Below, one piece after another: positions 30,740 to 58,634 of a DNA stretch of 64,000 nt; the stretch's first letter is position 1, and the number at the start of each line of letters is the position of its first letter. Source of the DNA: Lineus longissimus (lineage: Eukaryota > Nemertea > Pilidiophora > Heteronemertea > Lineidae); assembly GCF_910592395.1 (NCBI RefSeq), contig NC_088310.1:4845501-4909500 (forward strand). Reading direction: 5' to 3'. The translations under genes were made by a program, and so were the position numbers. The notes beneath the pieces were generated by a model, which saw nothing but the letters and a program-made list of their open reading frames with translations, was not told the origin of the DNA and made no database searches.

Positions 30740-33700
30740 ACACCTACATATTACAATATCTTCAAAACTGGTGCACCGGCTCAGTCCAATACAGTTTTTA
30801 GCAAAGAGTCAGAAATTTTGTTTTCCACTTGATCAGCATGATGACGATGAAGTTAGATTATCGAGAATGAGTTTAATAACAAGCTATGCGGAACAATAAG
30901 AAACTAAGCGAAAATGAGAAATTATAATACATACACGTGTAAATGTACGTCCAAGTGGGTTGTTTTTCATATTTGTCATGATTAATTTGTTAGCGATGAG
31001 AGCTAATCTCTTGTTCAAGTCTTGTGCTGTCATAAAAGTTAATCGTTTTAGGGAAGGAAGGGCCGGAGTCAATTGATCCAATTCAAAAACCAGCCGAAAC
31101 CCCTGAAGCATCTCGACGGCACCCTTGGCGTATTCTTCTGCTGTACCCTAAGGGGAAAAACGGAGGGTTTGGTATCTCGGGTTTGGCTGCTATAAAAACC
31201 TGCTTTCTATCGATTTGATTTGCATCTCTACCGAAGGACAGACGGCATCATCGTAGGCGGAATGAAACGTGGATATCTTTTCGATTCGTTTATAGAAATT
31301 AGGCTCAATTGTTGGAAGTAATTGCCAGAGCGCGTGATTGTGACTCGCTCCGAGGCAAAAACAACCGAAATATCATACCCTAGGGCAGTCAATAACCAGG
31401 CGTTTTAACGGTCCCTGATTTTTTACAAACGTGGTATCGCTCATTGTATGTTACTCTATCCCTGTGATTCGTCAAGGCTGTGGCGTTTGGGAGCAACAAT
31501 TTTAACTGGAAATTAATTTTGCTATTTTTACCAATATTGTTTCTCTATTTACTGGGTCTGTTTAACAAAATGTTAGGTTTAAAGTTTTTCTTGGCTGCTT
31601 TTACCCCTTATTCAGAGGTCTAGAACCAGTTTCTTTCACAGTTGTGGAAAGGCCACTGCGGCAATTCATGCCTATTCTCAGATGACAGTGCCCAAACCTC
31701 AACGATAATCTAAAGCGTGTATGAAAAAAGACTACTTGGGAGTCACCCTAGGGAAATAAGCATTAAGAAGTAACAGTTACGAATGGCCGATATTTACGTT
31801 TATCCTTTATTCCTTGGAAGTTCACCGGGGAATTTCTCTGTTAGGATAAAAAAATCACCTCGGCGAACGTTTTTAGTTGTACCCCACTCACTGTTACCTT
31901 AGATAGGAGATAACGAAGGCTGAGGGAAACACCGAGAAAGTGGAACACTCATCAGAACCAGTGCATTAAGAATTTCACCATTGCCATCTCGTGGGACACA
32001 TACACACTGGTGCGCAGTTCTTGAAGCCTGCTGGATGCTGCCTGTTCGTATTTCGTCACTCGTTCGTACTCGCAAACCCATCAGTTGAATTAATCTTTTC
32101 CGGCAACAATACTGCTCTCATTATTGTGATGAATTGTATGAGGCATTTTTGACTTAGATATTACGTTGAAAATATTAATTCCTCTGCCAAAGTCGATGAC
32201 AAACCCATTGTTAGTTGTCGATTTGATAAATTTTGTCACCGGCAAGTTGGAGCACAGGAAGCAATACCGCTATAGCCTAAAAAGAGGGCGAAATTGAAAC
32301 AAAATCAGAAGCAAAATGTAGATTTTTTTGGGCTACTTGTACAATTGTACGAGCAGTTCATAAACTCTTCGGCATAATGAGCATCATAGTGGACATACAC
32401 GTCCTGTGGCCAAGTCCTGTGCTCAATTGGTCCAGCCGGCATCTGGACTTCAACATCAGGAATACAATTACAGCCGAGTCCGTGCAAAACAGTAAGCCGA
32501 AGTAATCAGCCCATGCAGTATCAATCGCTCTCATATACACACAAAATTAATTCCTTGAGCGGAAGTGATGAACTGAATCAAAGCTATTCGGCCTTCCACC
32601 CCATTGTATTCGGATCGATCTAACACAATCTGCCATCTGGTACCACCATCGATATAGGCCTATGATGCCAACACAAGGCCTGTACATCTACCATACCCCT
32701 TTGCATTTGCCACTCCGCTCCGAGGCTGTGCACACGCGTTGGGAACTCCAAGTGGCCGAAGTGTGCACCAGTTGTGGCGGGAGTTGCCGTATCCCTTTCG
32801 GTAGTATAGGATTACAATGGCGTCCTCTGGCAGTACCCAGAGGTTTATAGAAGTGGAGGAGGAGCCAAACTGTTGTCTTAAATACATTACAATCATTGTT
32901 CGGACATGGGGTATTTTAACTGCGGGAGGTAGGTGAAATTTTCTATTTTCTCATTATTCGTCCCCTGCCAAGTCGGCATCCACCATTTATAAAAATACGA
33001 AGTACATGCATAATGTGATTGCTAGCAAGTATTACTCCAGATACGAGTGTGTATACATGTAAACGAAACTTTTCTTCCATGCTGCTCCATAAGTTGATAA
33101 AAAATCAGGCCTACCATAACCTGTATGTCATTAAAAATGCTCTCTAGTCATGTTATTCGGCCGGGTTAACTTAAAATTTGGGGTACCCGCATGAGTCATT
33201 AACCCTGGTGATTCGTCCTGTCCGAACAAAATGGCCTTAACAATGATATTCGTATGATGCCCCATTCGAAATGTCATTCGTCGTCCGAATTACTCCTCAT
33301 TGGGGGAAGGACGAGGCCAATCCACCAGGTCCGCGGAGTGTCGTCAACACTGCTAGTATGGATGAATCCGCATCCACTTAATACCCTAATGTAAAGATTT
33401 AGCAACATTCTTATTCAAGATAAACCTTAATCTCAGCAGATGAAGGTATGGAGCTTTCAATGGAAGCTTTCGTCTACCATTCCACCTGCAAGCCTTATAA
33501 CATAAACGATGGGTTTTCAGCACTTCGACATTCCACGTAAATCAAAGTCGATGTATAGTGGACCTGAGCATGAGCTTTCTACATTTAACAAATCTTATAC
33601 GGGGGTTTGAAATTGCTTGTGAACATCTGGTCCTTGTGTCAGTACTTGATTTGATGATCTATCATTACATTATGCAGCTGATCAAAGGGAATTTAAGTCA

Positions 33701-38599: not shown

Positions 38600-38666
38600 C
38601 GTTACTTGGCCTGTCGATCAGAAGTCTACAAGCAGACCACACCAAATATATCGGGTGGTATATCCT
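38600..38666 (+). CDS. TMEM72-like exon 2a (alternative)
   Basis: This 67-nt exon has acceptor TTTTGCTTCCAG and donor CCT|GTAAGT. It has two leading bases, 21 codons and two trailing bases. It encodes LLGLSIRSLQADH and then KYIGWYI, parallel to exon 2b. Only 69 nt separate it from exon 2b. Confidence 0.7.
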
Positions 38667-41600
38667 GTAAGTATCAAATTCTTTTCTTTCTTCCCTCTGA
38701 TCCAAAATAACAACCCTCTTCTTCCCATATTGCAGCTCTCTGGGGAACTTGTATCAAGCTATTACAACTTCATGCCGGATTAAAATTCCTAGGATGGTAT
38801 TTGCTGTAAGTTGGAGATTTCACACACATCGCTTTTGATGTTGTTTCTTCGTTTTATATCATGATTGAAGACTGATGTTCAATGATTATAATCACATTCC
38901 TCGTGTTAAAAATAGAGGTATAGACATCATCTAATGTTTTTGAACGATCGTGCAGTGAATTTGATGTATCCTACATGAAGCTGCTATTATACATCGAACC
39001 GACCCAAAACGGGTTCCTACAAAATGAAATGTTGGGATCTTGATGCAACGAGTTTTTGTTAAGTATTTTACATAGCATTATTGGCTCGAAGCCGATATCA
39101 TTTGTAAAATCACACAAATACACATAACTTCCGAGAATCGGTCTTCCTACACGTTAGTTAAATAGCGCATCAGTCTTTAATCCTTTTTACGTGTCGTATA
39201 CCAGTTAAGTTCCAAGCGTTCAGACATCTTGAAATTAACGCTGATCCGAAGCTTAGTATACACGACAATTTTGTTCGACATGTTCGAGGTTTTTGCCTCC
39301 TAGATCTTTAACCTCGCGGAAACTGACGTTTTGCATTATTTTCTAGTTATCCGTTCTTGAATTGAATTCTTGAATTTTGTCTCACATTTGTCCTCATATT
39401 ATTGTTGTACCTTACTTTGTTGACGAGTTTGTTCTTGAGTGTACCATTTTGTTTTCCAAAGCTAATCACTGTACATGTAAGCTAACATGATTGCTTCAAA
39501 TACGATTCATTGTTATCTTTGCCACATTATGTCATCATTCCCTAGAGTTAAGCTCAAGAGGGTTGTGACATTATCCATCCCTTTGATGTTACGATTAAAG
39601 GTAATGCTGTGTGTCATCCTGGATTTCGTACATTGTCCTTTTGACTCGCAGTGAACTCTTTGTGATGTTCTTGTAACAATCTAACCCTTGTGCATTGATA
39701 AAGAATGCACTTGCACTGCATATAGGCAATGGTAGACTGACGTACAGAAGATGATTTGTGTAGTAAAACTCGCAAGGTAAGATCACTGCACCGGGTGTTT
39801 TTAAGAGTTGACCAAAAATCAAAAGTACCAAGTACAGAAACTATACCTGTTTTTCTCAATATACTTGTAGAGTAGACGCAGATTAGCTTAACTTGGAAAT
39901 TACCTTGCCCAGTCTTTGATCGTACTTTCCAATTCTAAATAAGTCTTTTTAGGGCAAAGTCTCGGCCAGAATGCCAGGCATAATCCCTGTGTCATGCGTG
40001 TTTCCCATCACAAATATTCTCAGTTTTCTAGTAATGTGTTGTTGAGTCGCAGATTGCATCGGAAACACGCCATTACCACGCAATATCCAGATTACTCTCT
40101 CATTATTTTAATATTAGAATTCCAAGCTGTGAGGAAACGCTTTTTGTTATGGAGCATTACAACATTAAGACAGCCTTCGTGCTGTCACAGAAATGAACCT
40201 CAGCCCCGCTGCAATTTACGTTTTTCGGGAGATATCCATGTTGTGGACGGCAAAATCGATAGTCATAATCTGTCGTGATAAAACTGACCTCTCGCCTAAG
40301 CGGCAGTAAGAGTATGTTGACTATTATAATTATGTGGTAGACTGATATGTTGTGGGGAAATGTGAAATAAGCCTAAAAAGGTCATTTGACGTGTTCATGG
40401 TGTTGGTGTATTTGGAGGCGTAAAGATGGTGTTTCATGTCAAGTCCTTTAGTCGTCTGTCGGCAGCGTCGTCGTTGGCCTGTACTGCCCTACGATAAGTT
40501 ATATGCTGGCGTACCCTTGGTTCTTGCGACAAGGCCAAACCACCTGTGCTTCATCTTCTTGGCAAAGTTTAAGAGAATGTCATGTCATGAGAAAATCATC
40601 AAGTTTGGCTAAAATGGGTGTTCTGAGTTTAACGAACAGCTCGGGAAGCATTACACCAGTACTTTCGTCAGTGTCAAACAACTGAGTCTTTTCCAGTCTG
40701 CAAACAGAAAGATTTACTGATAACGCAATTAGCCTGAACAGACTACAGTGAAATTCCTAATGGTGATGAACTTCCGTTGCAATCAGCGTCCCCAGACAAG
40801 GGGACTTTACCATTACCAAGTTCACTCGAGCCATTCTGACGCTGTGTAATGGACAAGATCAATAGCACTTTCTTGATCACGTTGTTACGGTGCTGAAGAA
40901 AGAGGAGAGTGCTGCGGTAGATTCAGGCGAGATTCGCTCTTAGTCAAGATATGCCAAATGAAAGTGTATTTAGTTTACAACAGTATGAACTGAAAATCCA
41001 CAATGATCGCCTTCCCTGATGATAACTACCACCCCTAATTACCTGTCATGAATCGAATCGATACGGACAGCTGTTTAATGGTCCTGTGCTGTTGTTGAAC
41101 ATCGGCCCATCACATTCTGACTCAATCTCAAAGCACGAAGGAGACGATGTCTTGTTTACTCAACAACATCATGTTAATAGCAGCAGTAATAGCTATTTGC
41201 CTTTGGTGTCAATGATGACTTGCGCAGGTGCCTTCCTAGATAGACAAGATTCGACAGGAGACTGAAAATGGCGATATATGTGGCATCAGGTTAGGTACCA
41301 GCCCTTAAGAGCAACTTGAAAGGAACTTGGATTTCATGTCACGTGTGGTGATGAACATAACCAAGATTCCCCAAAGCACGTCCCTGCGTATAAAACCCCA
41401 TTATTAATCGAAAAACCAACACATGTCTAATTCAGCTATTGTTTATAAAGCTCTAGTGTCTTATCACAAATGAACATTCGGCCTACCAGTGCAGAGAGAA
41501 TTCCGCCACAAATATTTTGTATTCTAACTGCGTTCCTTTGGACTGTTCATAAGATCGAAAAGAACATATGGCATTTCCCAGACGGGCCATTAGTTTAGTA

Positions 41601-44600
41601 ATGGCCCAGTAGAGGAATTCGGTCAGGGCGAACAGTGAATGGCAGACAAATTCGTGTTATTAATCTTACCCTTGCGGGCCCACCGCGTGGTTGGTGATCA
41701 GTAAACAATTGTCTTCGTCGTTTCTGTGACGCAGAGAGTGGGGTATAGGTCCTAGCCTAAGAAAAACATTTTCCCAGTCAAGGTTTTCTCCATGGTTTTG
41801 TCATCCTGAAACCACACCCTGCTAAATCGCTTTTGGAGCCGCCCTGGATTGTGCCTCCAATAATTCAAGATGGCCGCCAAAGATCCAAAATGACTGCCTC
41901 TTGCCTCTTTCAACTGCCATTGATATTGATCTCATATCAAACGTATGAAGAATTCCCAATTTGTTCCATATGACATATGGTCAGTAAGCAACACTCTTGT
42001 ATTTGTCAAAAAAACATGTTGGTCTCCTAAAGTTGCATCTGTTGGCGCTCATTAGCAGCCAGTACATGAGGGCGCTGCTCTGATGGGCCGAACTCGATAG
42101 CGACGCTAGAAGCGATCAATGATGCGATATAGTGGTCCTAAATCGCTACACTTACCAGTCACTCGATCTATACCACAACAGTCTATGTAAGCAAGTCCGA
42201 TATCACTGTGCCGTTACAAAAGTCGGAAACACAATGATGTTCACCGAGATGGCAGTAAAGGGAGTCCGTAATTTATGATATTTGTCTCCATTCCACAGCG
42301 TTAATGTTCAGCATGCATGGGCCGCGGGTCTGTGATGCAGAGAGTTACGATGTTTGAAACACTAACACACAAATGTCATCTGCTAATACCTTCTGGATCA
42401 ATTGCCGTGATGCAGCTCTTCTCCAATGACCGTTGAATTTCGCAATGTTCTTTTTTTATTACTGGGGTAAAACGCCAAGATGACGAGTCTGTTCTGTTCC
42501 AAATGACTCAGTCCCGTGATACAGTCTATCACGCCATCTTTGCCTTGACCAGGCGTTGGTCAGCGACAAGGTCATCGGTTCATGGGACGCGCATCGATGA
42601 AGTGTAGGGTAGGGAATGCCAACCCTTCTCAGTATTGTATACATGCTTCCCGAAATTGGTGGCTTGCATTGGAACTAACTTTTTCCCTCTTGTCCGTCAT
42701 TAAAGGCATTCAAGTGTGTTGGTCAACCATGACTATCTCCTTTGTCCCTCCACCATAAGGCCTAGTTTCCCCTTATGACATTACTATTTCGGAGACTCAG
42801 TGCCCCATTTCTGGAAAGGTGTATTACTTCAATGGGATCACATATGACTGTATACACAAAAATGAAAAGTTCCATATCGAGTTGCTGCAAACTATGTACA
42901 ACATCCCTATTACCAACACATCATGTACATTACTCCACCTTTTCCACACATTCTTAAATTGTTTTTCTCTCTTGTTGCAGGGGCGTTGCTATCGTCGTTA
43001 CATTCTTTGAGCTGACCTGGCTGATCAACAAGTGTGCCTGCTGCGAGTAAGTGTGAACGTGCAACTGGACATAAATAAATAAAAATAATTTTCAACTTTA
43101 AAAGCAAAGCGTCATATTCAGGTTTCGTAAATATCTTCCACAACAGCGTTCGTCATATTTGGACAGTCTGTCAGGTACTAACCAATCAGAGGACAGCTAT
43201 TATGCCTGTTCGACGCAGACAGCGCGGTCATGATGGAGTACGGGAGTTTTGATTGGTCAATTCCTGTCACCTGATATAAGGTTTTCGGAAATAATACCTT
43301 CTTATATGTATATTCCTTACAGGTGTTGTTGCAAGTAAGTTTGTTCAGAGAATTTCATGAAAGGAAATGTCTGATTTGTTGCACATTCTGCCAGCATGTA
43401 TGGGCGAGGAAAATGATCGAATTGTTGCATACTCCATTCGGGCTCTCTCGGTGACCAAGCAAAAGCTCCATCTAGAAACACGATTATTGACTATTTGAAC
43501 GCTATCAGCATCATGCTGTTCTCCCATCGCTGTCTAGCTAACTACTGGTGCCGAGAGGGGCAGGCTATCAAACCAGTCAGATGACATAGTTCGATTCTCC
43601 AGTAACAATGACTTTGTCAATTGAAGTTGTCAAAAAAAAAGGAAAATATTGCCAGGAAAGTTTTTATGGGAATGCCTAGAAAAAAAATTCATTCATATTA
43701 TGTATGGGATAGGGAGGTTTTTTTGCATTACATATCAAGTGATCCTTTCCTTTTTACGTTATGCCTTTGATTTTCAGGACAACGGAGTAACAATTTGCTT
43801 GAAACCTCTTATATCTTGATTCATATCATTAACGATTTGTTAAGGAATTTATTTTATCAAAATGCACTTTATTTCGTATTGGTGAATACTTTCGAGTTTG
43901 CACGAAAAGGTTATCGTTGATTGAATCGATTATATGAATTAAATAAGCATTTTGCCTCCCTGTTTAAATTAAAAATTTGTGCTACTGCATTTCATTGAAA
44001 TTAGTTAATTATAGGCGAAAATGCCGAAATAAAGACTTTAAAAAAATTATAACGCAATGTAATTATTATTCACTGTAACTGGAATTAAATCATCAGACAA
44101 CGTAATATTATTCACTGCAATTGGGATTAAATATTGAAACAACAATATTATTCACTATATCCGCCATTTTAGTATGTTCAAGGCGTCAGTTGTTAAAAGA
44201 GACAGAATAATTTTCCTCATTTTAGGGAAATTTTGAAAGCTTGGTTTTCCTGTGATGATCATAGTACTTTACTCCTGACGATTCCGACTCTTATTTCCAG
44301 TGGAGGATGTGGCATCTGCTGCTGCTGGACAGGTGTCCTATGGATCGACGATTGGAGGAAGACCATACTGTATATTGGTTTATGCATAGCATGTTTCATA
44401 ATCAATTGGGTCAACCCCCTAGGAATCATAGCCGGTCAGTAGACGTGGACGATTTTCCGTCTAAACGGATGATTGTCCATCAAGACGGTTGATTTTTTGT
44501 CCACACGGATGATTTTCAATAAAGGTTTAAGGTTGAGGGTTTACATTTTCTTCTCTCTTTTGCAGTGACCGAAGTTGCTGTTGTTTAATTTGGAGAGGAA

Positions 44601-45643
44601 TTGTTTGGATTGACAACTGGCGAAAGACTCTTCTTTATGTTGCCTTGTGTATACCATGTTTTCTTAAGGGCATGAAAGTGTTAATGGGAGTTGTGTGTGG
44701 TTAGTAACTTATTTGCTGGGTTTCATTACAAAACACTCAATCGACAAAATTACTTTTTGGTCAGTCAAAATGACAAAATTACTTTTCGAATGAAATGACG
44801 TCATGAGACTGTCATTGTTAATCGGGAGCTTTTGCATCTGTGTATCTTGAACATGGGGTTAGGTCAATACAATGATGTTTTGTAGTGAAACACATAAACC
44901 TTTTTCACATTCATTTGCATGTTTTTTTCTGATTTGATAAAATCTGGCAAACTATCAACAGTAATCAGCCAATACCACATCGGTTACTGCACAAATTGCA
45001 AAATAAACTTTTAACACCAATGTTACAGCAAGACGAACGTACTCTCACAATTTACCGACAACATCACCTGATTATCAATCACCAACAAAATACTTAAAAC
45101 TGTACGTTGAGGTGACATCACTGTGTGATTGTTTTGGCGTCATTATGCTCGTCTTAAGGTTGCTTTGGGAATGGATTGGTTCGGTTGACGTATTTCTGAG
45201 CGTTGATTATGTGGAGAACGCGTTGTTGGTCGAATTCCAAACGAGTCTGACATTTGATATTGCTAACCGAAAAAAGATGGACCACGGCCGTATATGTATG
45301 GTTTTAATGACACTGGTGAGCTAGATTTGTTTTTTCCATTTCAATGGCTTCTTTCAGCGATTTCATTTTCCAATCGTGTTACTAAATTATCTTCCTTTTC
45401 CCAACAGGTTTGATATTGATAGTCTTAGCACTGCTGTATCTCGTAAAATCCTTCAAAAACGTCCATTGCGGCAAGAAAAAGCGGAACATTAACTATATGG
45501 AGGTGACCAGCCCAACTGTAAGCCTGGTCCAGCACGAGGTGTCACAACCTGCAGAGCAAGACATCTCACACCCCTCATCGCCAACAAAAGATCAAGACAG
45601 CGATACGTCATACCAGGGAGGGCAATCACCAACGTCGCCTTGA
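38600..45643 (+). CDS. TMEM72-like tetraspan membrane protein gene (5' end not found)
   Basis: Seven coding exons with matching phases were found: 2a or 2b, 3, a 12-nt microexon, 4a or 4b, and 5. They encode about 172 residues, to which an unseen first exon must be added. Hydrophobic segments run through FLGWYLLGVAIVVTFFELTW (exons 2b-3), LYVALCIPCFLKG or LYIGLCIACFIIN (exon 4), and LILIVLALLYLVKSF (exon 5). With one helix in the missing exon 1 this makes four. The order QxxxKxLxxYLL, then Glu in helix two, WxxxxLxYxxLxxxCF, and a final helix followed by a Lys/Arg cluster matches what I recall of vertebrate TMEM72, whose function is unknown. A cysteine-rich segment between helices two and three, and a Ser/Pro/Gln-rich tail, are distinctive. 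The exon calls are strong because all phases agree. The TMEM72 name is inferred. Confidence 0.65.
38736..38805 (+). CDS. TMEM72-like exon 2b (alternative)
   Basis: This 70-nt exon has acceptor TCCCATATTGCAG and donor GCT|GTAAGT. It has the same entry and exit phases as exon 2a. It encodes LWGTCIKLLQLHAGLKFLGW followed by YL. It differs from 2a by one codon in length and by most residues outside the L.G..I..LQ and K..GWY columns. Confidence 0.75.
38806..42980 (+). other. Intron 2 of the TMEM72-like gene
   Basis: This 4.2-kb intron has only short frames without domain signatures. I found no further copy of exon 2 in it. Confidence 0.5.
42981..43046 (+). CDS. TMEM72-like exon 3
   Basis: This 66-nt exon has acceptor TTTCTCTCTTGTTGCAG and donor TGCGA|GTAAGT. 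It completes a Leu codon from exon 2 (either form) and encodes GVAIVVTFFELTWLINKCAC followed by C and a split codon. It holds the second membrane helix, with a buried Glu, and the start of the cysteine-rich loop. Confidence 0.8.
43323..43334 (+). CDS. TMEM72-like 12-nt microexon
   Basis: GTGTTGTTGCAA lies between a good acceptor (TATATTCCTTACAG) and a consensus donor (GTAAGT). It enters and leaves in phase 2, so it can be included or skipped without changing frame. Inclusion adds E-C-C-C to an already cysteine-rich cytoplasmic or luminal loop. Its 3' end resembles the 3' end of exon 3 (GCCTGCTGCGA|GTAAGT), hinting at a partial local duplication. Confidence 0.55.
44301..44434 (+). CDS. TMEM72-like exon 4a (alternative)
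   Basis: This 134-nt exon has acceptor CTTATTTCCAG and donor GCCG|GTCAGT, entering in phase 2 and leaving in phase 1. It encodes GGCGICCCWTGVLWIDDW, then RKTILYIGLCIACFI and NWVNPLGIIA. It has the same length as exon 4b. The donor GTCAGT is weaker than consensus. Confidence 0.8.
44447..44526 (+). repeat. 20-nt tandem repeat between the alternative exons 4a and 4b
   Basis: Four consecutive 20-nt units begin with GGACGATT, GGATGATT, GGTTGATT and GGATGATT, at 44447, 44467, 44487 and 44507. The intron is only 131 nt long, so the repeat fills most of it. It may affect splicing or may be neutral; the position is suggestive only. Confidence 0.75.
44566..44699 (+). CDS. TMEM72-like exon 4b (alternative)
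   Basis: This 134-nt exon has acceptor TTCTCTCTTTTGCAG and donor TGTG|GTTAGT, with the same phases as 4a. It encodes DRSCCCLIWRGIVWIDNW, then RKTLLYVALCIPCFLKG and MKVLMGVVC. The WID(D/N)WRKT(I/L)LY core is shared with 4a, while the C-terminal half of the helix and the following loop differ. Confidence 0.8.
45408..45643 (+). CDS. TMEM72-like terminal exon 5
   Basis: The acceptor is TTCCTTTTCCCAACAG. The exon completes a Gly codon from 4a or 4b, then gives the last helix (LILIVLALLYLVKSF), a basic cluster (CGKKKRN) and a hydrophilic Ser/Pro/Gln/Asp-rich tail ending at TGA. An AATAAA lies about 85 bases after the stop. The tail has the look of a cytoplasmic, possibly phosphorylated region. Confidence 0.8.
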
Positions 45644-50693: not shown

Positions 50694-51917
50694 GTAAGGT
50701 CCGTGGTAGTATGTAGGCAGGTTTCGCAACCCTACGAACAACGAAGATACGTCGTGTCATCAAGTCCTCTGCAGATTCGTTTTCGCGACACTGGTAGTGC
50801 ACCTTTTATATTTAGTCATTCGAGGAATCGGTGCCAGTGACAAAATACATTTACATGCTCCGTATTTCGTCGTTCGTAGCTCTTTGTAGAGGTTATGAAA
50901 TTTGCTTAATATAGCAGCTTTATTGTTCAAATTCTTTTTTTTCAGGTAACCATTACAGGTTATTCCAATTTTAAAACATATCACCGCCCAGAATATAAAA
51001 CAGACCGCCTACAGGCTCAAGCCCAACTTACCTACAACAAAAATCGTCGAATGTTCATCGGTTTTCATGGTTCACGAATTGCGCAGATCTTTGTTATGGG
51101 ATCTGGGCAAAGGCTTGATATAATTGCTGATTTTATGAGTCACGTCCCAAAACCATACTTGGAAAGGATGATGGGTTTCTATGGGAATGGTATTATCGTC
51201 TATGCAGCACCAGCATGGCGACAAACCAAACAGCCCCATCAAATTCTGATAGGGTTTCGCTATTTTTGCGGGAAGTATGTTATCAGGACAAAACCCCATC
51301 CGGAGTTGTATGCTAAAGATGGGTCATCTCCCCGTTGTGAGTTTAGCGTTAACCAAGAAAAGCTTGTGTCATATTGCAAAGCCCGCAACTCGAGTGTCCG
51401 TGTCACTATTTCTAGCATAGTAATTTCTAAAAAACAGTTCATACCTACACTAATCAAGTCCGAAATTGTACAAAACCATACAAAAAAACCACATATCTTA
51501 TGGATTTCTGACACAGATTTCATTGTGTGGTTCGGAAATATATTGGAAATATTAGTTTTCAGAAAAATTAACGAATACGCATATTTTAGGCTAATGATGT
51601 CATTCCCGGAACAATTCAAATTCACCGATGTTCTTTTCGATGACCCGACAGGTTCCATCCTACTTGTGACGGCGAACCAACGAATGGCTTGGGTCGAGTC
51701 GGAGTATGTTAGTTCCGACACCACAAAGATGGAAAACATCATTCGGGTTCGTGGACACGTTTTCAATACACAATTACTTTCCGGTTGTGCGATTGGCAGT
51801 TGTTTTCTTGACGGAGAAGGAAATCTTCTCCATGTGATATTTTACTTCCCAAAGATGGCAAAGGAGGTACTCAGAGTGGATGTGTACAAACCCCAACATT
51901 CATACCGCCGGCGGTAA
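50306..51917 (+). CDS. Two-exon gene, unrecognised 448-aa protein
   Basis: Exon 1 (50306-50693) and exon 2 (50959-51917) join in phase 1 to give 448 codons plus TAA. The N-terminal part starts with a basic-hydrophobic stretch (LFFARFMILRLFRLQVF) that could be a signal anchor or leader. It is followed by a cysteine-containing segment, CGRGRSHLDCTATC and NLREVSC, with spacing loosely like PAN/apple domains. The C-terminal 300 residues have alternating hydrophobic strands, e.g. RIAQIFVMGSGQRLDIIA, TGSILLVTANQRMAWVE and GSCFLDGEGNLLHVIFYF. This could fit a beta-rich or propeller-like fold. No catalytic motif is seen. The frame is also open upstream of the chosen ATG, so a further 5' exon is possible. 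The gene is convergent with the methyltransferase gene. Confidence 0.6.
50959..51917 (+). CDS. Exon 2 of the unrecognised 448-aa protein
   Basis: The acceptor is the second AG (CCATTACAG) after a T-rich tract. The more obvious AG sixteen bases upstream (TTTTTCAG) would put the frame out of register with exon 1. The 300-codon open frame ends with a basic tail (PQHSYRRR) and TAA. Confidence 0.6.
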
Positions 51918-53045: not shown

Positions 53046-56000
53046 CTGAAAAAACACAGAAGAATATATATTTGTTTTGTCAGTGCGTGTATTCATGGGC
53101 TCAGAGCTGGTCAGATATGCATGTCTGGTATACATGTTCGACTATACCAGCATCTATCTCCGAGCGTGCTCACAATAACAGGAGAATCGGATTTGAGAGG
53201 TCCTCCTCAGTGCCACTTCACTCTGAATTGAAAGATTATGCAACTGTGGGTAACACAACGCAGCATACCTCTTGATTATCATTATCGAAATCATAATTTC
53301 AATTCTTGCTACACAACATGGTTGGTTAAAAGATGCGGGCCCTTTAAGAGCCTCAACCAATGATTCCTATGGTAGACGGTAATAAAGGCACTGGAAAAAA
53401 GGCACTGGAAAAAAAGGTACGGAAAAAGGCACTAGGTAAAAAAGGCACTAGGTAAAAAGGCACTGGAAAAAAAAGGCACTAGGTAAAAAAGGCACTAGGA
53501 AAAAAAGGCTCTAGGAAAAAAGGCACTAGGTAAAAAAGGCACTAGGAAAAGGGCACTGGGTAAAAAATGCACTAGGTAAAAAAGGTACTGGAAAAAAGGC
53601 ACCAGGAAATCACTATACTAGGTAAAAAAGGCACTGGAAAAAAAGGCACCAGGAAATCTCTAGGTGAAAAATTCATTTGGGGTGCCCCCCCCGTGCATTT
53701 CTATATGTGTAATGTGCTAAGTATAATGTGCTTCCAAGTCTTTCTCACTGATAAACTATTGTATCTTGTAGAAATAGGTTATTGGTGAGGGAACCCTGAA
53801 TCTAATTTGATTAAACTACTGGACCAAATCGGATGATCTTTGTATCATTTTTTATAAGGATTCCCTGCCTATCCAAGCTAGACGCAATGGTCCCGGAACC
53901 GCCGACAGGCGGCACCACCTCACGACGAAGGCTTTTGCGGACCGCTTCAAATGGTTTCATAAGTCATATTCCTGGTTGTGGATTTCGACCTCCAGTTATC
54001 TATGATAGAACCAGCTCCAATCGGTTTAGCCGCATGGAATAGTTAGCAAAATAATTTTCAAGGTAGTTTACGGTGAAAAGGAGCGCGGACGAAATTTGAC
54101 TTAGAAGAAAAAAAGGATTTTATCGGTGAATATCAAAACTGATGACGCGTCCGAAATTGTGAACTGATAATTTTTAGCAAGATCCGATGACGACGCAGAC
54201 ATTGCACAATTTTGTGACGTTGCACCACACACGATTTTATGACGTTGTACACCTCGTGTATGCACGTGTATGCTCATGTCATCGTGCGGTAAAATATGAC
54301 AGCCACGGCTGCCGGTACTTTCGGTGTTTGCGCCTTGTAACTGGTAAGTTTGTGGAAAGAGCCATGTTTCAAGTGACATAAGCCATTAGGAATGCGTGTG
54401 TATTCTTTGGGCGGCTTGTAGTAATTAATGACACCGAGCTTGAAGTCAAGTAAGTAGTACTAGTGTGGGCCTAGGCCCGACCGGCATCCACTCTGCTCAT
54501 TTCATGATTTGGTCAACGATTTGAAGCAGCCGTATCATACCCAAAAACATTCACAAGTGCAATGTTTCATGCCAGAAAGTTCCACAACATGACATGCACC
54601 AAACTTCTTGCAATTATGACGTCAGTGCATACAGCACATTCCAGTGCCCAAATGCAGCAGGGACAAAATCACATCAATGCATCCTTCTTCTCGTCAACCA
54701 CAACTGTCCGATATTCCACGACATTTCTATCTGAATGTGAGTACAAACAGAACCAATCAACTTGTATCCGCTTCATCCATTTAACATCTGCAGCACAATG
54801 TGAGAGGACGCATTGCCTTCATAAGCAATGCATCCTCTCACCTCTCACCTCCAAACCTCAAACTGTCCAAATAAAACTTTCCCTTTTTACAAACTCTACA
54901 ACAAAACTGAATGTCAGTATAAACAGCTCCTAATCAACTCATATAACCTTAAATCACTTTACATGTGCAGTATCGTGTGAGAGCTTCCACATCATAAAAG
55001 CCCTATATGATCACCACAGGAGAAAAACCATCCACCATTGCCACCCCAAACCCACAAATACAACCCTACAAGTCGAGAACACCCTCCATATGGCCAAACT
55101 CACTGCTCCTTACTAAATAAGCTCAAATAACCAAACCCAGCTTGTTCCGAAAACTCTGGTTTTTTCTGGTCGGAGGGTACTGAAAATAGGCTGTTCCGTT
55201 TTTTTGGACCACCAAGTATTCTGTTGATGTTGAAAAATTACACATAGAAATTTTTATTTTTATTTTTATCTATGTAGTAGAGATTTCTCAGAGATTTCCC
55301 ATACATTTTTTCTGGTGCCATTTTTCCATTGCCTTTTTTTCTGGTGCCTTATTTCCAGTGCCTTTTTTACCTAGTGCCTTTTTTCCTAGTGCCTTTTTTA
55401 CCTAGTGCCTTTTTTCCGTTCCTTTTTTTCCAGTGCCTTTATTACCTACATTCGATTCCTATATGTACAAATTACCTGGTTTGACAAGCTTGACAAGATC
55501 CAGGAAACCGTTTGTCGGGATCATATCAGGAGCGAATCCACCGCAACAGCATACCAGGTCATAGGTTCCTGTGAGGAAAACACTGAGCAGGTGACGCATG
55601 TGGCCAGAGACCTCTATTAAAACCTGTGTACATTACGTGTACATTGTTGTGCATAAGTTTTGGTAAAGAAAGTACACATTGGACCAATCAATCTGCACAA
55701 AATTTTATATGTGTCAAGAAGAACCCTTTGCCAATAGCATAATAAAGTTTAAAAACATTCCAATACCGATTGCCTGAGAAAAAGAGATTTCCGTACACCA
55801 TATCCATCAAAACGTCACTGGCGCATTGATATGGCCCTGTCAAAGTACAAGTTCTAAACTGACCAGTGAGACCACATTTTCTTAAATATATTATCAAAAA
55901 GCATATTTCTGTGATGGCCTGACTCTGTAGATTAAGAATCAACCACAGATTGAGAATTAATTCCACTTTGGTCCATCCCAGCCATGTATTTACCACAACT

Positions 56001-58634
56001 TGACATTTTGATAAGCTCTACTTCCGGTCGTGGATGAATACATGACTCTGCCCATGTTAAAACAGTTTTACATTCTTGCGTAGGAGTGGGAGAGCTTTTG
56101 GGAAACACTGTTTATTCAGTGTGTTCGGAATTAATTAGGCGAAATCAGCTTTTCCAGGTTACACCTCATGCAGTGTCACCTTTTGCTTGCGCTACCGGTC
56201 ATTTTCTAACCCATTTCTCGTCAGCTTTTCCAGGTTACACCTCATGCAGTGTCAGCTTTTGTTTGCACTAGCGGTCATTTTTTAACCCATTTCTCGTCCT
56301 TTTCCAGGTTACACCTCATGCAGTGTCACCTTTTTTTTGCGCTACCGGTCATTTTCTTACCCATTTCTCGTCAGCTTTTCCAGGTTACACCTCATGCAGT
56401 GTCAGCTTTTGTTTGCGCTACTGGTCATTTTTAACCCATTCTCGTCAGCTTTTCCAGGTTACACCTCATGCAGTGTCAGCTTTTGTTTGCACTTCCGGTC
56501 ATTTTTTAATCCATTTCTTGTTAGTCAAAACAAGCAAATTGCGACTAGTGACATTGAACATTGAAATGTGTCTCCAACGTCTTACATCAAATAAAAAATG
56601 TAAATAAAAATTGCCAGGCTCCCTCCCCACCCAGCCTTCAAGAAAATATTCGGACGCGGATCAATTTAAAAAATTTTTACCTGGCCTAAACTTCACTTAC
56701 CATTTGCCCTCGACGCGAAAGTTTCATCCCCCACAAACACACAGTAGGTTTGTTTGTAAAGATTTTTCTTTTCAGCAAGATCTAACATTGCTCGATTTGC
56801 GTCTAAGCCATCAATATTGGAGTAACCTTTCTCTATCAGCTGCAACAAGACGAATAGTTCATATTAATAGAACTTACATCAAAACGGATATTGTAGAAAA
56901 AGCATACACGTATATATGATCATATTCTTTAGAACATAAAAAATCGCGGTCTCAATATCAATCCAGTGGATACAGGCCGTCCGCTTGAACTACTGATGTA
57001 ACTGTTGCATCGTCAAATTCTTAGTAGGTCTTGTTCCGCTTCTTAGCACTCTTTAAAGAGTGCTTCATCATGACACGTTGACAACAAATGGTGGAGTGGT
57101 TGCAGGGCGTCGCCAGTGAAATAGTAGTCAACATACCTTCTTATGGCAAGCCAAAGCGGAATATATTCAAGACTTTAGAATAACCATTCAAGAAGTTAAA
57201 TATAAGTTCAAGAAGGAAATATATGTTCAAGACTAAAATATGTTCAACCTTGAATCAAATGTTTTCAACCTTAAATAAAATATGTTCAACCTTGAACAAA
57301 ATATGTTCAACCTTGAATAAAATATGTCCAACCTTGAACAAAATATATTCAACCTTGAACAAAATATATTCAAGACTCACGTGACCATATTCAAGACTCA
57401 CGTGACCATATTCAAGACGCACGTGACCACAAAATTGATGACGTAGAGCGTAGAATCTGTGGTACTTCTGATGCGTTCTGTTTCACGACGTGATTGATTG
57501 CCTGTATAGCCTTAACACTCAAACATGTCAAAAGACAACGAGAATCCGATACAGTGGTATGAAAGGTGAGAGGCATTGCGCATTTTGAACCTATAATTTG
57601 CCTGATATGTCTGTGAAACATGTATCGACTCTGACATTCACTCGGCATCCATGTCATGATGTGTAGGATTACAGTACATGTCAGGTGTAGGCGGCTAGGT
57701 ACGTGTACAACCATGTGTCAAAACCTTCGTGCGAACAATTCGAGCTCCGAAACGCAACACAAGTACCATGGGTTCGGGAAAGTCTGGACGCGGGTTCGGG
57801 AAAGTCCGTAAAGCATCAAAACATGAGCAACTACGTCATCAATTTTGTGGTCACGTGCGTCTTGAATATGGTCACGTGAGTCTTGAATATATTTTGTTCA
57901 AGGTTGAATATATTTTGTTCAAGGTTGGACATATTTTATTCAAGGTTGAACATATTTTATTCAAGGTTGAACATATTTTATTCAAGGTTGAAAACATTTG
58001 ATTCAAGGTTGAACATATTTTAGTCTTGAACATATATTTCCTTCTTGAACTTATATTTAACTTCTTGAATGGTAATTCTAAAGTCTTGAATAAATTCCGC
58101 TTTGGCTTGCCATACCTTCTCGGCCGCGGCTCCTGTGCCACATGCCGCGTCCAGGATTCTCGCGCTATGGTTGTCTTCGAGGCATCTCACCACTGCTTCG
58201 GCTGCCAACGTGGGCCCGACATAGTTGATGGCGTTGCCTTCATGGTGTGTCTTGGAGCAGAAAATGACAATAAAATTCCTTGTTATGCAATTAAATTTGG
58301 CAATTGCAAATGGTACATAATCACGGAGAACATAGCATGAATTGATGACACGTAGTCAATTTCACGCGTAGAACTTATCAGATGACACTTTTTTACCAGA
58401 TGATATTTTGAATATTTGTTTTTTTCGGAGTTCTACAATTGCAACAAGGGTTGAAAGAGTGAAAAACAGCGAGAGGAGACAAAATTTAGTACAAATAATG
58501 ATTGTTACCTTCTCATACAGATCGGCTTTTTCTGTATGAAATGTATTCCACAAATTAGGTGTAGGTGCAACCATTGCCATATTGTAAGCCTTTACATAGG
58601 CCTCTGCTGCTGTCACTGCTTCTTCAGTTGACAT
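52870..58634 (-). CDS. METTL27-like: METTL27-like SAM-dependent methyltransferase, complete five-exon gene
   Basis: Five exons with agreeing phases give 222 residues. Motif I, the glycine-rich SAM-binding loop, is ILDAACGTG at about residues 74-82. The acidic ribose-binding position follows in YSNIDGLDANRAMLDLA (about 93-109). A TYDLVCCCGGF strand (about 135-145) and VKLVKPGGFF (about 159-168) complete the class I Rossmann layout. The element YVGPTLAAEAV before motif I and the overall length (human METTL27 is about 245 residues) fit the METTL27/WBSCR27 family. Substrate and role are not established here. The start ATG has A at -3 (AGGATGT). Introns 2 and 4 hold foldback transposons and intron 3 a minisatellite. 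The product is probably cytosolic, as no leader or membrane segment is seen. Confidence 0.85.
53362..53370. repeat. Target-site duplication, left copy, of foldback II
   Basis: GATTCCTAT is repeated exactly at 55454-55462 on the other side of the element. Confidence 0.6.
53371..55453. mobile_element. Foldback transposon II, about 2.1 kb, 9-bp target duplication
   Basis: The flanks carry an identical 9-bp direct repeat GATTCCTAT (53362-53370 and 55454-55462). The arms start with an inverted GGTAATAAAGGCACTGG and consist of many short units of the type AAAAAAGGCACTAGGT: about 295 bp at the left, about 155 bp of the inverse at the right. The interior has a 123-codon frame without a recognisable transposase, so the element appears non-autonomous. 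Long repetitive inverted arms with 9-bp duplications recall foldback or Mutator-like elements; this classification is inferred. Confidence 0.7.
55454..55462. repeat. Target-site duplication, right copy, of foldback II
   Basis: GATTCCTAT matches 53362-53370. It lies just inside intron 4, 13 bases from the exon 4 donor on the minus strand. Confidence 0.6.
55476..55568 (-). CDS. METTL27-like: METTL27-like exon 4
   Basis: It has two bases, 30 codons and one base, from the acceptor TTTTCCTCACAG to the donor AACCAG|GTAATT. It encodes TYDLVCCCGGFAPDMIPTNG and FLDLVKLVKP. The donor GTAATT is below consensus and lies 14 bases from the end of the second foldback element. Confidence 0.85.
56146..56521. 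repeat. Minisatellite, five units of about 73-75 bp
   Basis: Units begin near 56146, 56221, 56297, 56371 and 56445. Each carries CTTTTCCAGGTTACACCTC, then TGCAGTGTCA, a GTTTGCGCTACCGGTCATTT-type block, and CCCATTTCTCGTCAG. The copies are close to identical, so the expansion is recent. The array lies in intron 3 of the METTL27-like gene. The open frames running through it are a by-product of the unit. Confidence 0.85.
56701..56839 (-). CDS. METTL27-like: METTL27-like exon 3
   Basis: It has 46 codons plus one base, from the acceptor TTCGTCTTGTTGCAG to the donor AAATG|GTAAGT. It encodes LIEKGYSNIDGLD and the following helix (NRAMLDLAEKKNLY), then CVFVGDETF. Confidence 0.85.
57045..57064. repeat. 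Perfect 20-bp palindrome
   Basis: AGCACTCTTTAAAGAGTGCT equals its own reverse complement. It sits inside original intron 2 sequence of the METTL27-like gene, outside the foldback element. Its role is unknown. Confidence 0.6.
57141..58113. mobile_element. Foldback transposon I with arms of about 290-300 bp
   Basis: The left arm (about 57141-57444) and right arm (about 57830-58113) are nearly perfect inverted copies. They start TATGGCAAGCCAAAGCGGAA and contain tandem units such as AATATGTTCAACCTTGAAC, then copies of ATTCAAGACTCACGTGACC. A 385-bp spacer without a recognisable gene lies between. The direct repeat ATACCTTCT flanks both ends (6-10 bp, depending on where the element edge is drawn). 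It lies in intron 2 of the METTL27-like gene, at the exon 2 splice donor. Transcribed RNA would form a long hairpin. Confidence 0.8.
58116..58250 (-). CDS. METTL27-like: METTL27-like exon 2 with SAM-binding motif I
   Basis: It has 45 codons in phase 0, from the acceptor TTTTCTGCTCCAAG to the donor GAGAAG|GTATGG. It encodes GPTLAAEAV and ILDAACGTG. The donor lies at the very edge of a foldback element: the bases after GTA belong to or abut the element end. An upstream-of-insertion copy of the same donor sits on the far side of the element. Confidence 0.85.
58509..58634 (-). CDS. METTL27-like: METTL27-like exon 1
   Basis: It has 42 codons, from ATG to the donor GAGAAG|GTAACA, phase 0. It encodes the N-terminal helix region (MSTEEAVTAAEAYVKAYNMA onward, ending KADLYEK). 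On the opposite strand the first seven bases overlap a candidate plus-strand open region. Confidence 0.8.

What the first reader, a model, noticed from the sequence alone, without database searches (positions are those of the whole stretch)
44301..44699. Second pair of mutually exclusive exons, equal in length and frame-locked
Exons 4a and 4b are both 134 nt, enter in phase 2 and leave in phase 1, and share the WID(D/N)WRKT(I/L)LY core. Joining 4a to 4b reads G-TG ACC GAA ... GTT TAA and stops after a few codons. Skipping both also gives a stop in exon 5 before the tail. Only a single choice gives the full protein. Combined with the exon 2 pair, four membrane-protein isoforms are possible. I know of no description of this in the TMEM72 family.
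Basis: partly seen in the sequence, partly recalled or inferred. Interest (0 to 1): 0.88.

Follow-up and report, generated by a model that had tools for sequence, protein, structure and literature searches.

The report
Swappable twin exons in worm TMEM72
A ribbon-worm gene for a small membrane protein carries two alternative versions of one exon side by side, and only one at a time gives a full protein; the second version looks preserved by selection, but its use has not been shown.

Summary
Exons 1-2a-3-4b-5 of this window translate to exactly P0001, RefSeq LOC135485476 isoform X2 of the ribbon worm Lineus longissimus. The gene is a TMEM72 family member (PF16054, 73.7-82.7 bits, cut-off 29). 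Exons 4a (44301-44434) and 4b (44566-44699) are both 134 nt, share phases and are homologous (18/44 aa). A mechanical scan finds 4a at relative score 0.469, against at most 0.051 in 20 shuffles, and no third copy in the gene. Of 40 exon combinations tested, 8 are full-length; each holds exactly one exon 2 and one exon 4. 4a is no neutral relic: omega 0.18 (p 0.002), and 4a equals 4b at all 7 columns that are at least 90% conserved in 17 homologues. Mutually exclusive splicing is the best reading, enforced at least by frame: double inclusion stops 111 nt before the last junction. Against it, three searches found no 4a protein, and the two-member 90% cluster of X2 leaves no room for a plain 4a swap (87%). 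4b looks default, 4a regulated, rare or just lost. New member of a known kind; searches found no description for TMEM72.

The parts
32817..32928 (+). exon 1, coding part from ATG (leaves phase 1)
   Evidence: translation and identity with RefSeq isoform X2
38600..38666 (+). exon 2a (67 nt), used in RefSeq isoform X2
38667..38735 (+). 69-nt intron between 2a and 2b; the one consensus branch point A is 34 nt from the donor
38736..38805 (+). exon 2b (70 nt), homologous alternative to 2a; nearer than 2a to 11 of 17 homologues, 5 ties, 1 model lacks the segment; use not shown
42981..43046 (+). exon 3 (66 nt), single copy
43323..43334 (+). candidate 12-nt in-frame microexon (would turn CC-D into CC-ECCCN); skipped in isoform X2
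44301..44434 (+). exon 4a (134 nt), diverged alternative; use not shown
44435..44565 (+). 131-nt intron between 4a and 4b, unusually structured (z -2.99)
44445..44480 (+). 15-bp predicted RNA hairpin starting 10 nt inside the intron, directly behind the 4a donor; overlaps a 20-nt tandem repeat
44566..44699 (+). exon 4b (134 nt), canonical copy, used in RefSeq isoform X2
45408..45643 (+). exon 5, coding part to TGA

Best explanation
The Lineus longissimus TMEM72 gene underwent two tandem exon duplications and makes alternative proteins by choosing one copy of exon 2 and one copy of exon 4. Shown: the 4a/4b pair is a true old duplication, frame-locked, with its protein sequence under selection; 4b is used in an annotated isoform. 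Inferred: 4a is used in some tissue or stage. Inferred mechanism for exclusivity: 4b has the much stronger acceptor and is the default; 4a has a weaker acceptor, and its donor lies against a stable predicted intronic hairpin, so it needs an activating condition. If both are taken, the frame breaks and the mRNA is a likely substrate for nonsense-mediated decay (stop 111 nt upstream of the last junction). Choosing 4a swaps the cysteine-rich linker, the third membrane helix and the turn to the fourth, and takes the segment from +4 to 0 net charge. The exon 2 pair swaps the turn between helices 1 and 2; in a four-helix membrane protein both turns should lie on the same face.
For: Same length, phase, splice-site type and homology. 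Codon positions 1/2/3 match at 22/31/16 of 44; permutation p 0.0008. Codon-model omega 0.18, LRT p 0.0017, total distance 3.9; where the amino acid is the same, the codon is identical in 9 of 18, or 6 of 15 without W and M. All 7 columns at least 90% conserved in 17 homologues are identical in 4a and 4b, p 0.0008; at looser cut-offs 9 of 11 (80%), 9 of 12 (70%) and 14 of 23 (50%), p 0.002 to 0.007. A Capitella protein alone finds both copies in the window, E 9e-14 and 4e-6. 8 of 40 exon combinations are full-length, each with one exon 2 and one exon 4. Acceptor score 14.1 for 4b against 5.0 for 4a; donors 5.0 and 6.3 (weight tables recalled from memory). Intron fold -36.8 kcal/mol against -27.2 +- 3.2, 2 of 200 shuffles as good; the ten outer pairs of the hairpin have probability 0.77-0.98 with flanks added. 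4b isoform. Four helices predicted for it; charges.
Against: No 4a-containing protein was found in three searches of 5.8 billion proteins (one search scored only the 7992 candidates sharing most words), and the two-member cluster of isoform X2 leaves no room for a plain 4a swap. The donor-to-branch-point distance of 109 nt is too long for simple steric exclusion. No clear docking/selector pairing: upstream intron with 4a-4b intron -34.4 kcal/mol, mean of 12 shuffles -28.9, best -34.1; the other two intron pairs lie within shuffles. By eye no two of the 17 homologue proteins look like exon 4 swaps of one another; their genes could not be read. No RNA data could be reached. The omega test is on the pair and does not by itself say that 4a is still under selection today.
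Confidence: 0.72

Rival explanations
1. 4a is a formerly used alternative that has recently fallen silent; the gene now makes only 4b proteins.
For: Only 4b is seen in the annotated isoform, and neither member of its cluster should be a plain 4a swap. 4a has lost residues kept by 4b: P112 (6 of 6 spiralian or spiralian-like homologues) and basic K116 (K or R in 12 of 17). Its acceptor is weaker.
Against: No stop codon, no net length change, intact splice sites and all 7 most conserved family columns after strong silent divergence. Long neutral drift is excluded; a recent loss is not.
Confidence: 0.15
2. 4a acts as a regulatory 'poison' exon: it is sometimes included together with 4b, and the frame break sends the mRNA to decay, tuning gene output.
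For: Joint inclusion gives a stop 111 nt before the last junction, and no steric bar to the 4a-4b splice was found (donor to branch point 109 nt).
Against: A poison exon need not keep an open, family-like reading frame in exactly the phase that makes it a substitute for 4b; 4a does.
Confidence: 0.07
3. 4a is used as an alternative last exon by polyadenylation in the 4a-4b intron, giving a protein with three membrane helices.
For: Reading on from 4a meets a stop after two codons (GQ*), and AATAAA lies at 44518.
Against: AATAAA occurs 54 times on each strand of the window, so one in the intron is weak evidence; the donor of 4a is intact and in the phase of exon 5.
Confidence: 0.03
4. Assembly artefact or collapsed tandem genes rather than alternative exons of one gene.
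For: Capitella has two TMEM72 genes with consecutive numbers (CAPTEDRAFT_225987 and _225988), so gene duplication does occur in the family.
Against: Only exons 2 and 4 are doubled; tblastn of the whole protein shows exons 1, 3 and 5 once in the window, and the exon scan shows exon 3 once. 53% nucleotide identity is far from haplotype copies; the published assembly used PacBio long reads and removed haplotypic duplication (passages of PMC8593623).
Confidence: 0.01

Closest known systems
Tandemly duplicated mutually exclusive exon pairs of animals (prediction criteria in PMC3228551, human survey PMC5740500)
   Same: About equal length, same phase, same splice-site type, sequence homology, adjacent copies; lengths not divisible by three so that joint inclusion breaks the frame, as in 377 (60%) of the human clusters; joined reads were nevertheless seen in 83 of those (passages of PMC5740500).
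   Different: No splice-junction reads here, so the expression criteria of PMC5740500 are untested; no case in TMEM72 turned up in the searches made.
Genes with several mutually exclusive clusters (Dscam, CUX1)
   Same: Two separate clusters in one gene, multiplying isoforms.
   Different: Two copies per cluster in a protein of about 204 residues; no clear docking/selector pairing of the Dscam kind (passages of PMC6071210).
Vertebrate TMEM72
   Same: The Pfam family named after it, PF16054, is matched well above its cut-off (73.7-82.7 bits against 29).
   Different: No alternative exon 4 found in print; no named vertebrate protein was among the 18 hits, so no direct comparison was made.

Membership tests
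TMEM72 family (PF16054) | Match to the Pfam profile over most of its length above the gathering score | tested here: met
   six of the eight possible isoforms tested, three with 4a and three with 4b: 73.7-82.7 bits, profile 6-132 of 135, cut-off 29
TMEM72 family (PF16054) | Four membrane helices (recalled as typical of the family) | tested here: met
   AlphaFold2 model of the 4b isoform: helices 19-48, 50-80, 87-117, 121-158; mean pLDDT 72.4, pTM 0.56. The 4a isoform was not modelled
mutually exclusive exon pair | About equal length | tested here: met
   134 and 134 nt
mutually exclusive exon pair | Same reading-frame phase and splice-site type | tested here: met
   both AG/GT, phase 2 in, phase 1 out
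mutually exclusive exon pair | Sequence homology above chance (relative score at least 15%) | tested here: met
   46.9%; shuffle maximum 5.1% in 20
mutually exclusive exon pair | Each exon joined to both neighbours in mRNA | tested here: inconclusive
   4b: RefSeq isoform X2. 4a: no protein found; RNA reads not available
mutually exclusive exon pair | No joined mRNAs, or joined mRNAs with a broken frame | tested here: inconclusive
   a joined mRNA would be out of frame with an early stop; its presence in RNA is not testable here
steric exclusion (donor to branch point under 50 nt) | Short donor to branch point distance between 4a and 4b | tested here: not met
   109 nt, by a consensus branch point only; for 2a-2b it is 34 nt and met
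docking-site/selector control | One intronic site complementary to competing sites beyond chance | tested here: inconclusive
   three intron pairs scanned; one (-34.4) just beyond its best of 12 shuffles (-34.1), two within

The most novel reading that the evidence does not exclude
The exon 4 pair is as old as the split between ribbon worms and annelids or older: 4b shares more residues with Capitella TMEM72 (25/44) than with 4a (18/44), while 4a is no further than 4b from the 11 ecdysozoan or ecdysozoan-like homologues taken together (163 against 146 shared residues). TMEM72 would then be an ancient two-switch membrane protein of Spiralia, in which paired exon choices remodel both turns on one membrane face, controlled at exon 4 by an RNA hairpin that masks the 4a donor, with 4a lost or overlooked in annelids and molluscs. 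The tree does not exclude this but does not favour it.
Probability: 0.12. Interest if true: 0.6.

Novelty: new member of a known kind. Interest (0 to 1): 0.45.

Why it matters
TMEM72 is a little-understood membrane protein. Passages that I read call it kidney-enriched and place it at the cell membrane (PMC13147424), or cite mitochondria and an unknown function (PMC7019016). An animal with two interchangeable versions of two of its segments gives a natural experiment on which parts of the protein can vary and which cannot. It may also show isoforms that annotation misses: 4a is open, framed and long selected, yet none of three protein searches found a protein that contains it.

Tried and rejected
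Tried: search of the window's own genome, which did not complete because the machine was busy or unreachable; so copies of exon 4 elsewhere in the genome were not sought. Rfam (gathering threshold) and tRNA scans of the window: nothing. PDB fold search with the 4b model: 0 of 135 matches with E at or below 0.001, not informative. Competing RNA pairing between the three introns: upstream intron with the 4a-4b intron -34.4 kcal/mol against mean -28.9 and best -34.1 in 12 shuffles, marginal; the pair 4a-4b intron with the downstream intron (12 shuffles) and the pair upstream with downstream intron (5 shuffles) within shuffles. Tree of the exon 4 segment: the free tree groups 4a with 4b (80.7/81), but the AU test also keeps 4b with annelids and mollusc to the exclusion of 4a (p 0.39), so the age of the duplication stays open. 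Two counting methods for dN/dS failed; a codon model was fitted instead.

Rejected: chance similarity, assembly duplicate, whole-gene tandem copy, simple steric exclusion at exon 4.

The 50-55 nt rule for decay is recalled. The species name rests on an exact match to one RefSeq protein. The inference from cluster membership assumes that the stated 90% clustering holds for this cluster and that its second member is a distinct sequence. Calling P0005 and P0017 spiralian-like and P0010, P0012, P0013 and P0015 arachnid-like is my reading of the alignment; their sources give no names.
Full report
What is there. The window carries one TMEM72 gene on the plus strand. Translating exons 1 (from 32817), 2a, 3, 4b and 5 (to 45643) gives a 204-residue protein identical to P0001, named by its source 'uncharacterized protein LOC135485476 isoform X2 [Lineus longissimus]'. 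I take the window to be from that ribbon worm; the longest contig given for P0001 is 29,083,594 bases and the published assembly's longest scaffold is 29 Mb. Pfam TMEM72 (PF16054) is matched by six tested isoforms at 73.7 to 82.7 bits against a cut-off of 29; those with 4b score 82.3 to 82.7, those with 4a 73.7 to 74.3.

The pair. 4a (44301-44434) and 4b (44566-44699) are each 134 nt, in the same phase, 71/134 nt and 18/44 residues identical. A scan modelled on published criteria for mutually exclusive exons (PMC3228551, outline with abstract and passages seen) tested 157 candidate exons in the gene for 4b and kept two: itself and 4a at 0.469. The best of 20 shuffled regions was 0.051; the reverse strand (1011 candidates) and 49,500 bases of the rest of the plus strand (744) gave none. 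The same scan recovers 2a from 2b at 0.325 (one chance hit of 0.175 among 1406 reverse-strand candidates, none among 1125 on the plus strand, shuffle maximum 0.119) and finds no copy of exon 3. At nucleotide level the 4a/4b likeness spans 109 nt at 65% and starts 13 nt upstream of the exon.

The logic of the frame. Of 40 exon combinations, 8 are full-length: one exon 2, one exon 4, with or without the 12-nt candidate (an earlier run, dropped the last base of the stop codon and is superseded). 4a+4b stops 111 nt before the last junction, a likely decay substrate. Skipping exon 4 stops 85 nt inside exon 5, so such an mRNA would be expected to escape decay if exon 5 is the last exon, and gives about 109 residues. 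Reading past the donor meets a stop at once in 4b and after one further codon in 4a.

Selection. Codon positions 1, 2, 3 agree at 22, 31, 16 of 44 (permutation p 0.0008). A codon model gives total distance 3.9 and omega 0.18 (p 0.0017 against 1). For 2a/2b the distance hits its bound (49.9), so only the test (p 0.003) is usable there. Where 4a and 4b code the same amino acid the codon is the same in 9 of 18, or 6 of 15 without W and M. Of 44 columns, 7 are at least 90% conserved in the 17 homologues; 4a and 4b are identical at 7 of 7, and each carries the family's commonest residue at 6 of 7. At cut-offs of 80, 70 and 50% they agree at 9 of 11, 9 of 12 and 14 of 23 (p 0.002 to 0.007). As both copies have the same age and silent change is extensive, a 4a that had long been neutral should have lost these.

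Which copy is canonical. By residues shared in exon 4, 4b is nearer than 4a to 7 of 17 homologues, 4a to 7, with 3 ties. All six spiralian or spiralian-like rows favour 4b; 10 of the 11 others are even or favour 4a. 4a has lost P112 (6 of 6 spiralian rows) and the basic K116 (12 of 17). For exon 2, 2b is nearer to 11 of 17, 5 ties, and one model (Paralvinella) lacks the segment. The tree of exon 4 segments groups 4a with 4b at 80.7/81, but the AU test does not exclude 4b with other spiralians without 4a (p 0.11 with annelids, 0.39 with annelids and mollusc). So the duplication is probably on the ribbon-worm line, possibly older.

Evidence on use. 4b is used in X2, with 2a. Three protein searches returned one Lineus cluster. 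It has two member sequences; a 4a-for-4b swap is 178/204 identical (87%), below the stated 90%, so neither member should be such a swap. A 2b-4b protein would be 192/205 (94%) and could be the second member; that is a guess.

How it may work. The intron between 2a and 2b is 69 nt with a consensus branch point 34 nt from the donor, within the below-50 range counted as potential steric interference in PMC5740500 (passages); that pair may exclude itself. Between 4a and 4b the distance is 109 nt, so steric exclusion is not expected. The 4b acceptor is far stronger (14.1 against 5.0), which predicts 4b as default. The intron folds unusually well (z -2.99; 2 of 200 shuffles as good): a 15-bp hairpin at 44445-44480 stands directly behind the 4a donor, itself in a small 3-bp stem, and persists in three folds with flanks added. 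I infer that it hinders the 4a donor and perhaps shortens the path to the branch point; neither is tested. Frame breakage then removes double inclusions. In the human survey 377 clusters (60%) have such lengths, and joined reads were seen in 83 of those.

What changes in the protein. The model of the 4b isoform (18-row alignment, mean pLDDT 72.4) has four helices, 19-48, 50-80, 87-117, 121-158. Exon 2 covers the first turn; exon 4 covers the cysteine-rich linker, helix 3 and the second turn. With four membrane helices both turns should lie on one face (inference). 4b has six basic and two acidic residues, 4a two and two; cysteines are six in each.

Novelty. Mutually exclusive pairs are a known kind. 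For TMEM72 I found none: (116, 3 and 0 papers; 30 and 2 listings seen), and PMC7019016, whose only TMEM72 place is on expression. Searches for such exons with Lophotrochozoa (3 papers) and Nemertea (6 papers) were seen as listings only and name no such gene in title or the start of the abstract. Most subscription papers are not in that library.

Noticed in passing
43323-43334: A 12-nt candidate microexon with a near-perfect donor (CAA/GTAAGT), in frame between exons 3 and 4, adding a further Cys-Cys-Cys. It is the only one of its strength on the plus strand of the window, none on the minus strand (mean 0.1, in-frame 0.07, in 30 random sequences). RefSeq X2 skips it; its acceptor is weak.
   Followed up: partly
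44435-44565: The short 4a-4b intron holds a 20-nt tandem repeat (44447-44494) and folds into a strong hairpin behind the 4a donor.
   Followed up: partly
57142-58114: Fold-back element: two arms of 267 nt, 98% complementary, 439 nt apart, the arms partly built of 21-nt tandem repeats. Looks like a mobile element with repeat-filled inverted ends.
   Followed up: no
53378-53656 and 55306-55448: Two arrays of a 15-16-nt unit in opposite orientation, about 1.65 kb apart; may be the ends of another element.
   Followed up: no
56145-56518: Five copies of a 74-nt unit in the same repeat-rich stretch.
   Followed up: no
50910-51917: Stop-to-stop open frame of 335 codons on the plus strand with no Pfam match (E up to 10) or NCBIfam match (E up to 1).
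   Followed up: partly
P0002 and P0009 (Capitella teleta): Two TMEM72 genes with consecutive numbers, each on a contig of 237,611 bases, 55% identical over 86%: apparent whole-gene duplication in an annelid where the ribbon worm duplicated exons.
   Followed up: partly
P0014 (Paralvinella palmiformis): The gene model lacks the exon 2 segment, perhaps an annotation failure.
   Followed up: no
TMEM72 isoforms and P0002: Weak, sub-threshold likeness to COPI_assoc (PF08507, E 0.02, isoform 2a-4a) and Cg6151-P (PF10233, E 0.033, Capitella), which may hint at a wider family of four-helix trafficking proteins.
   Followed up: no
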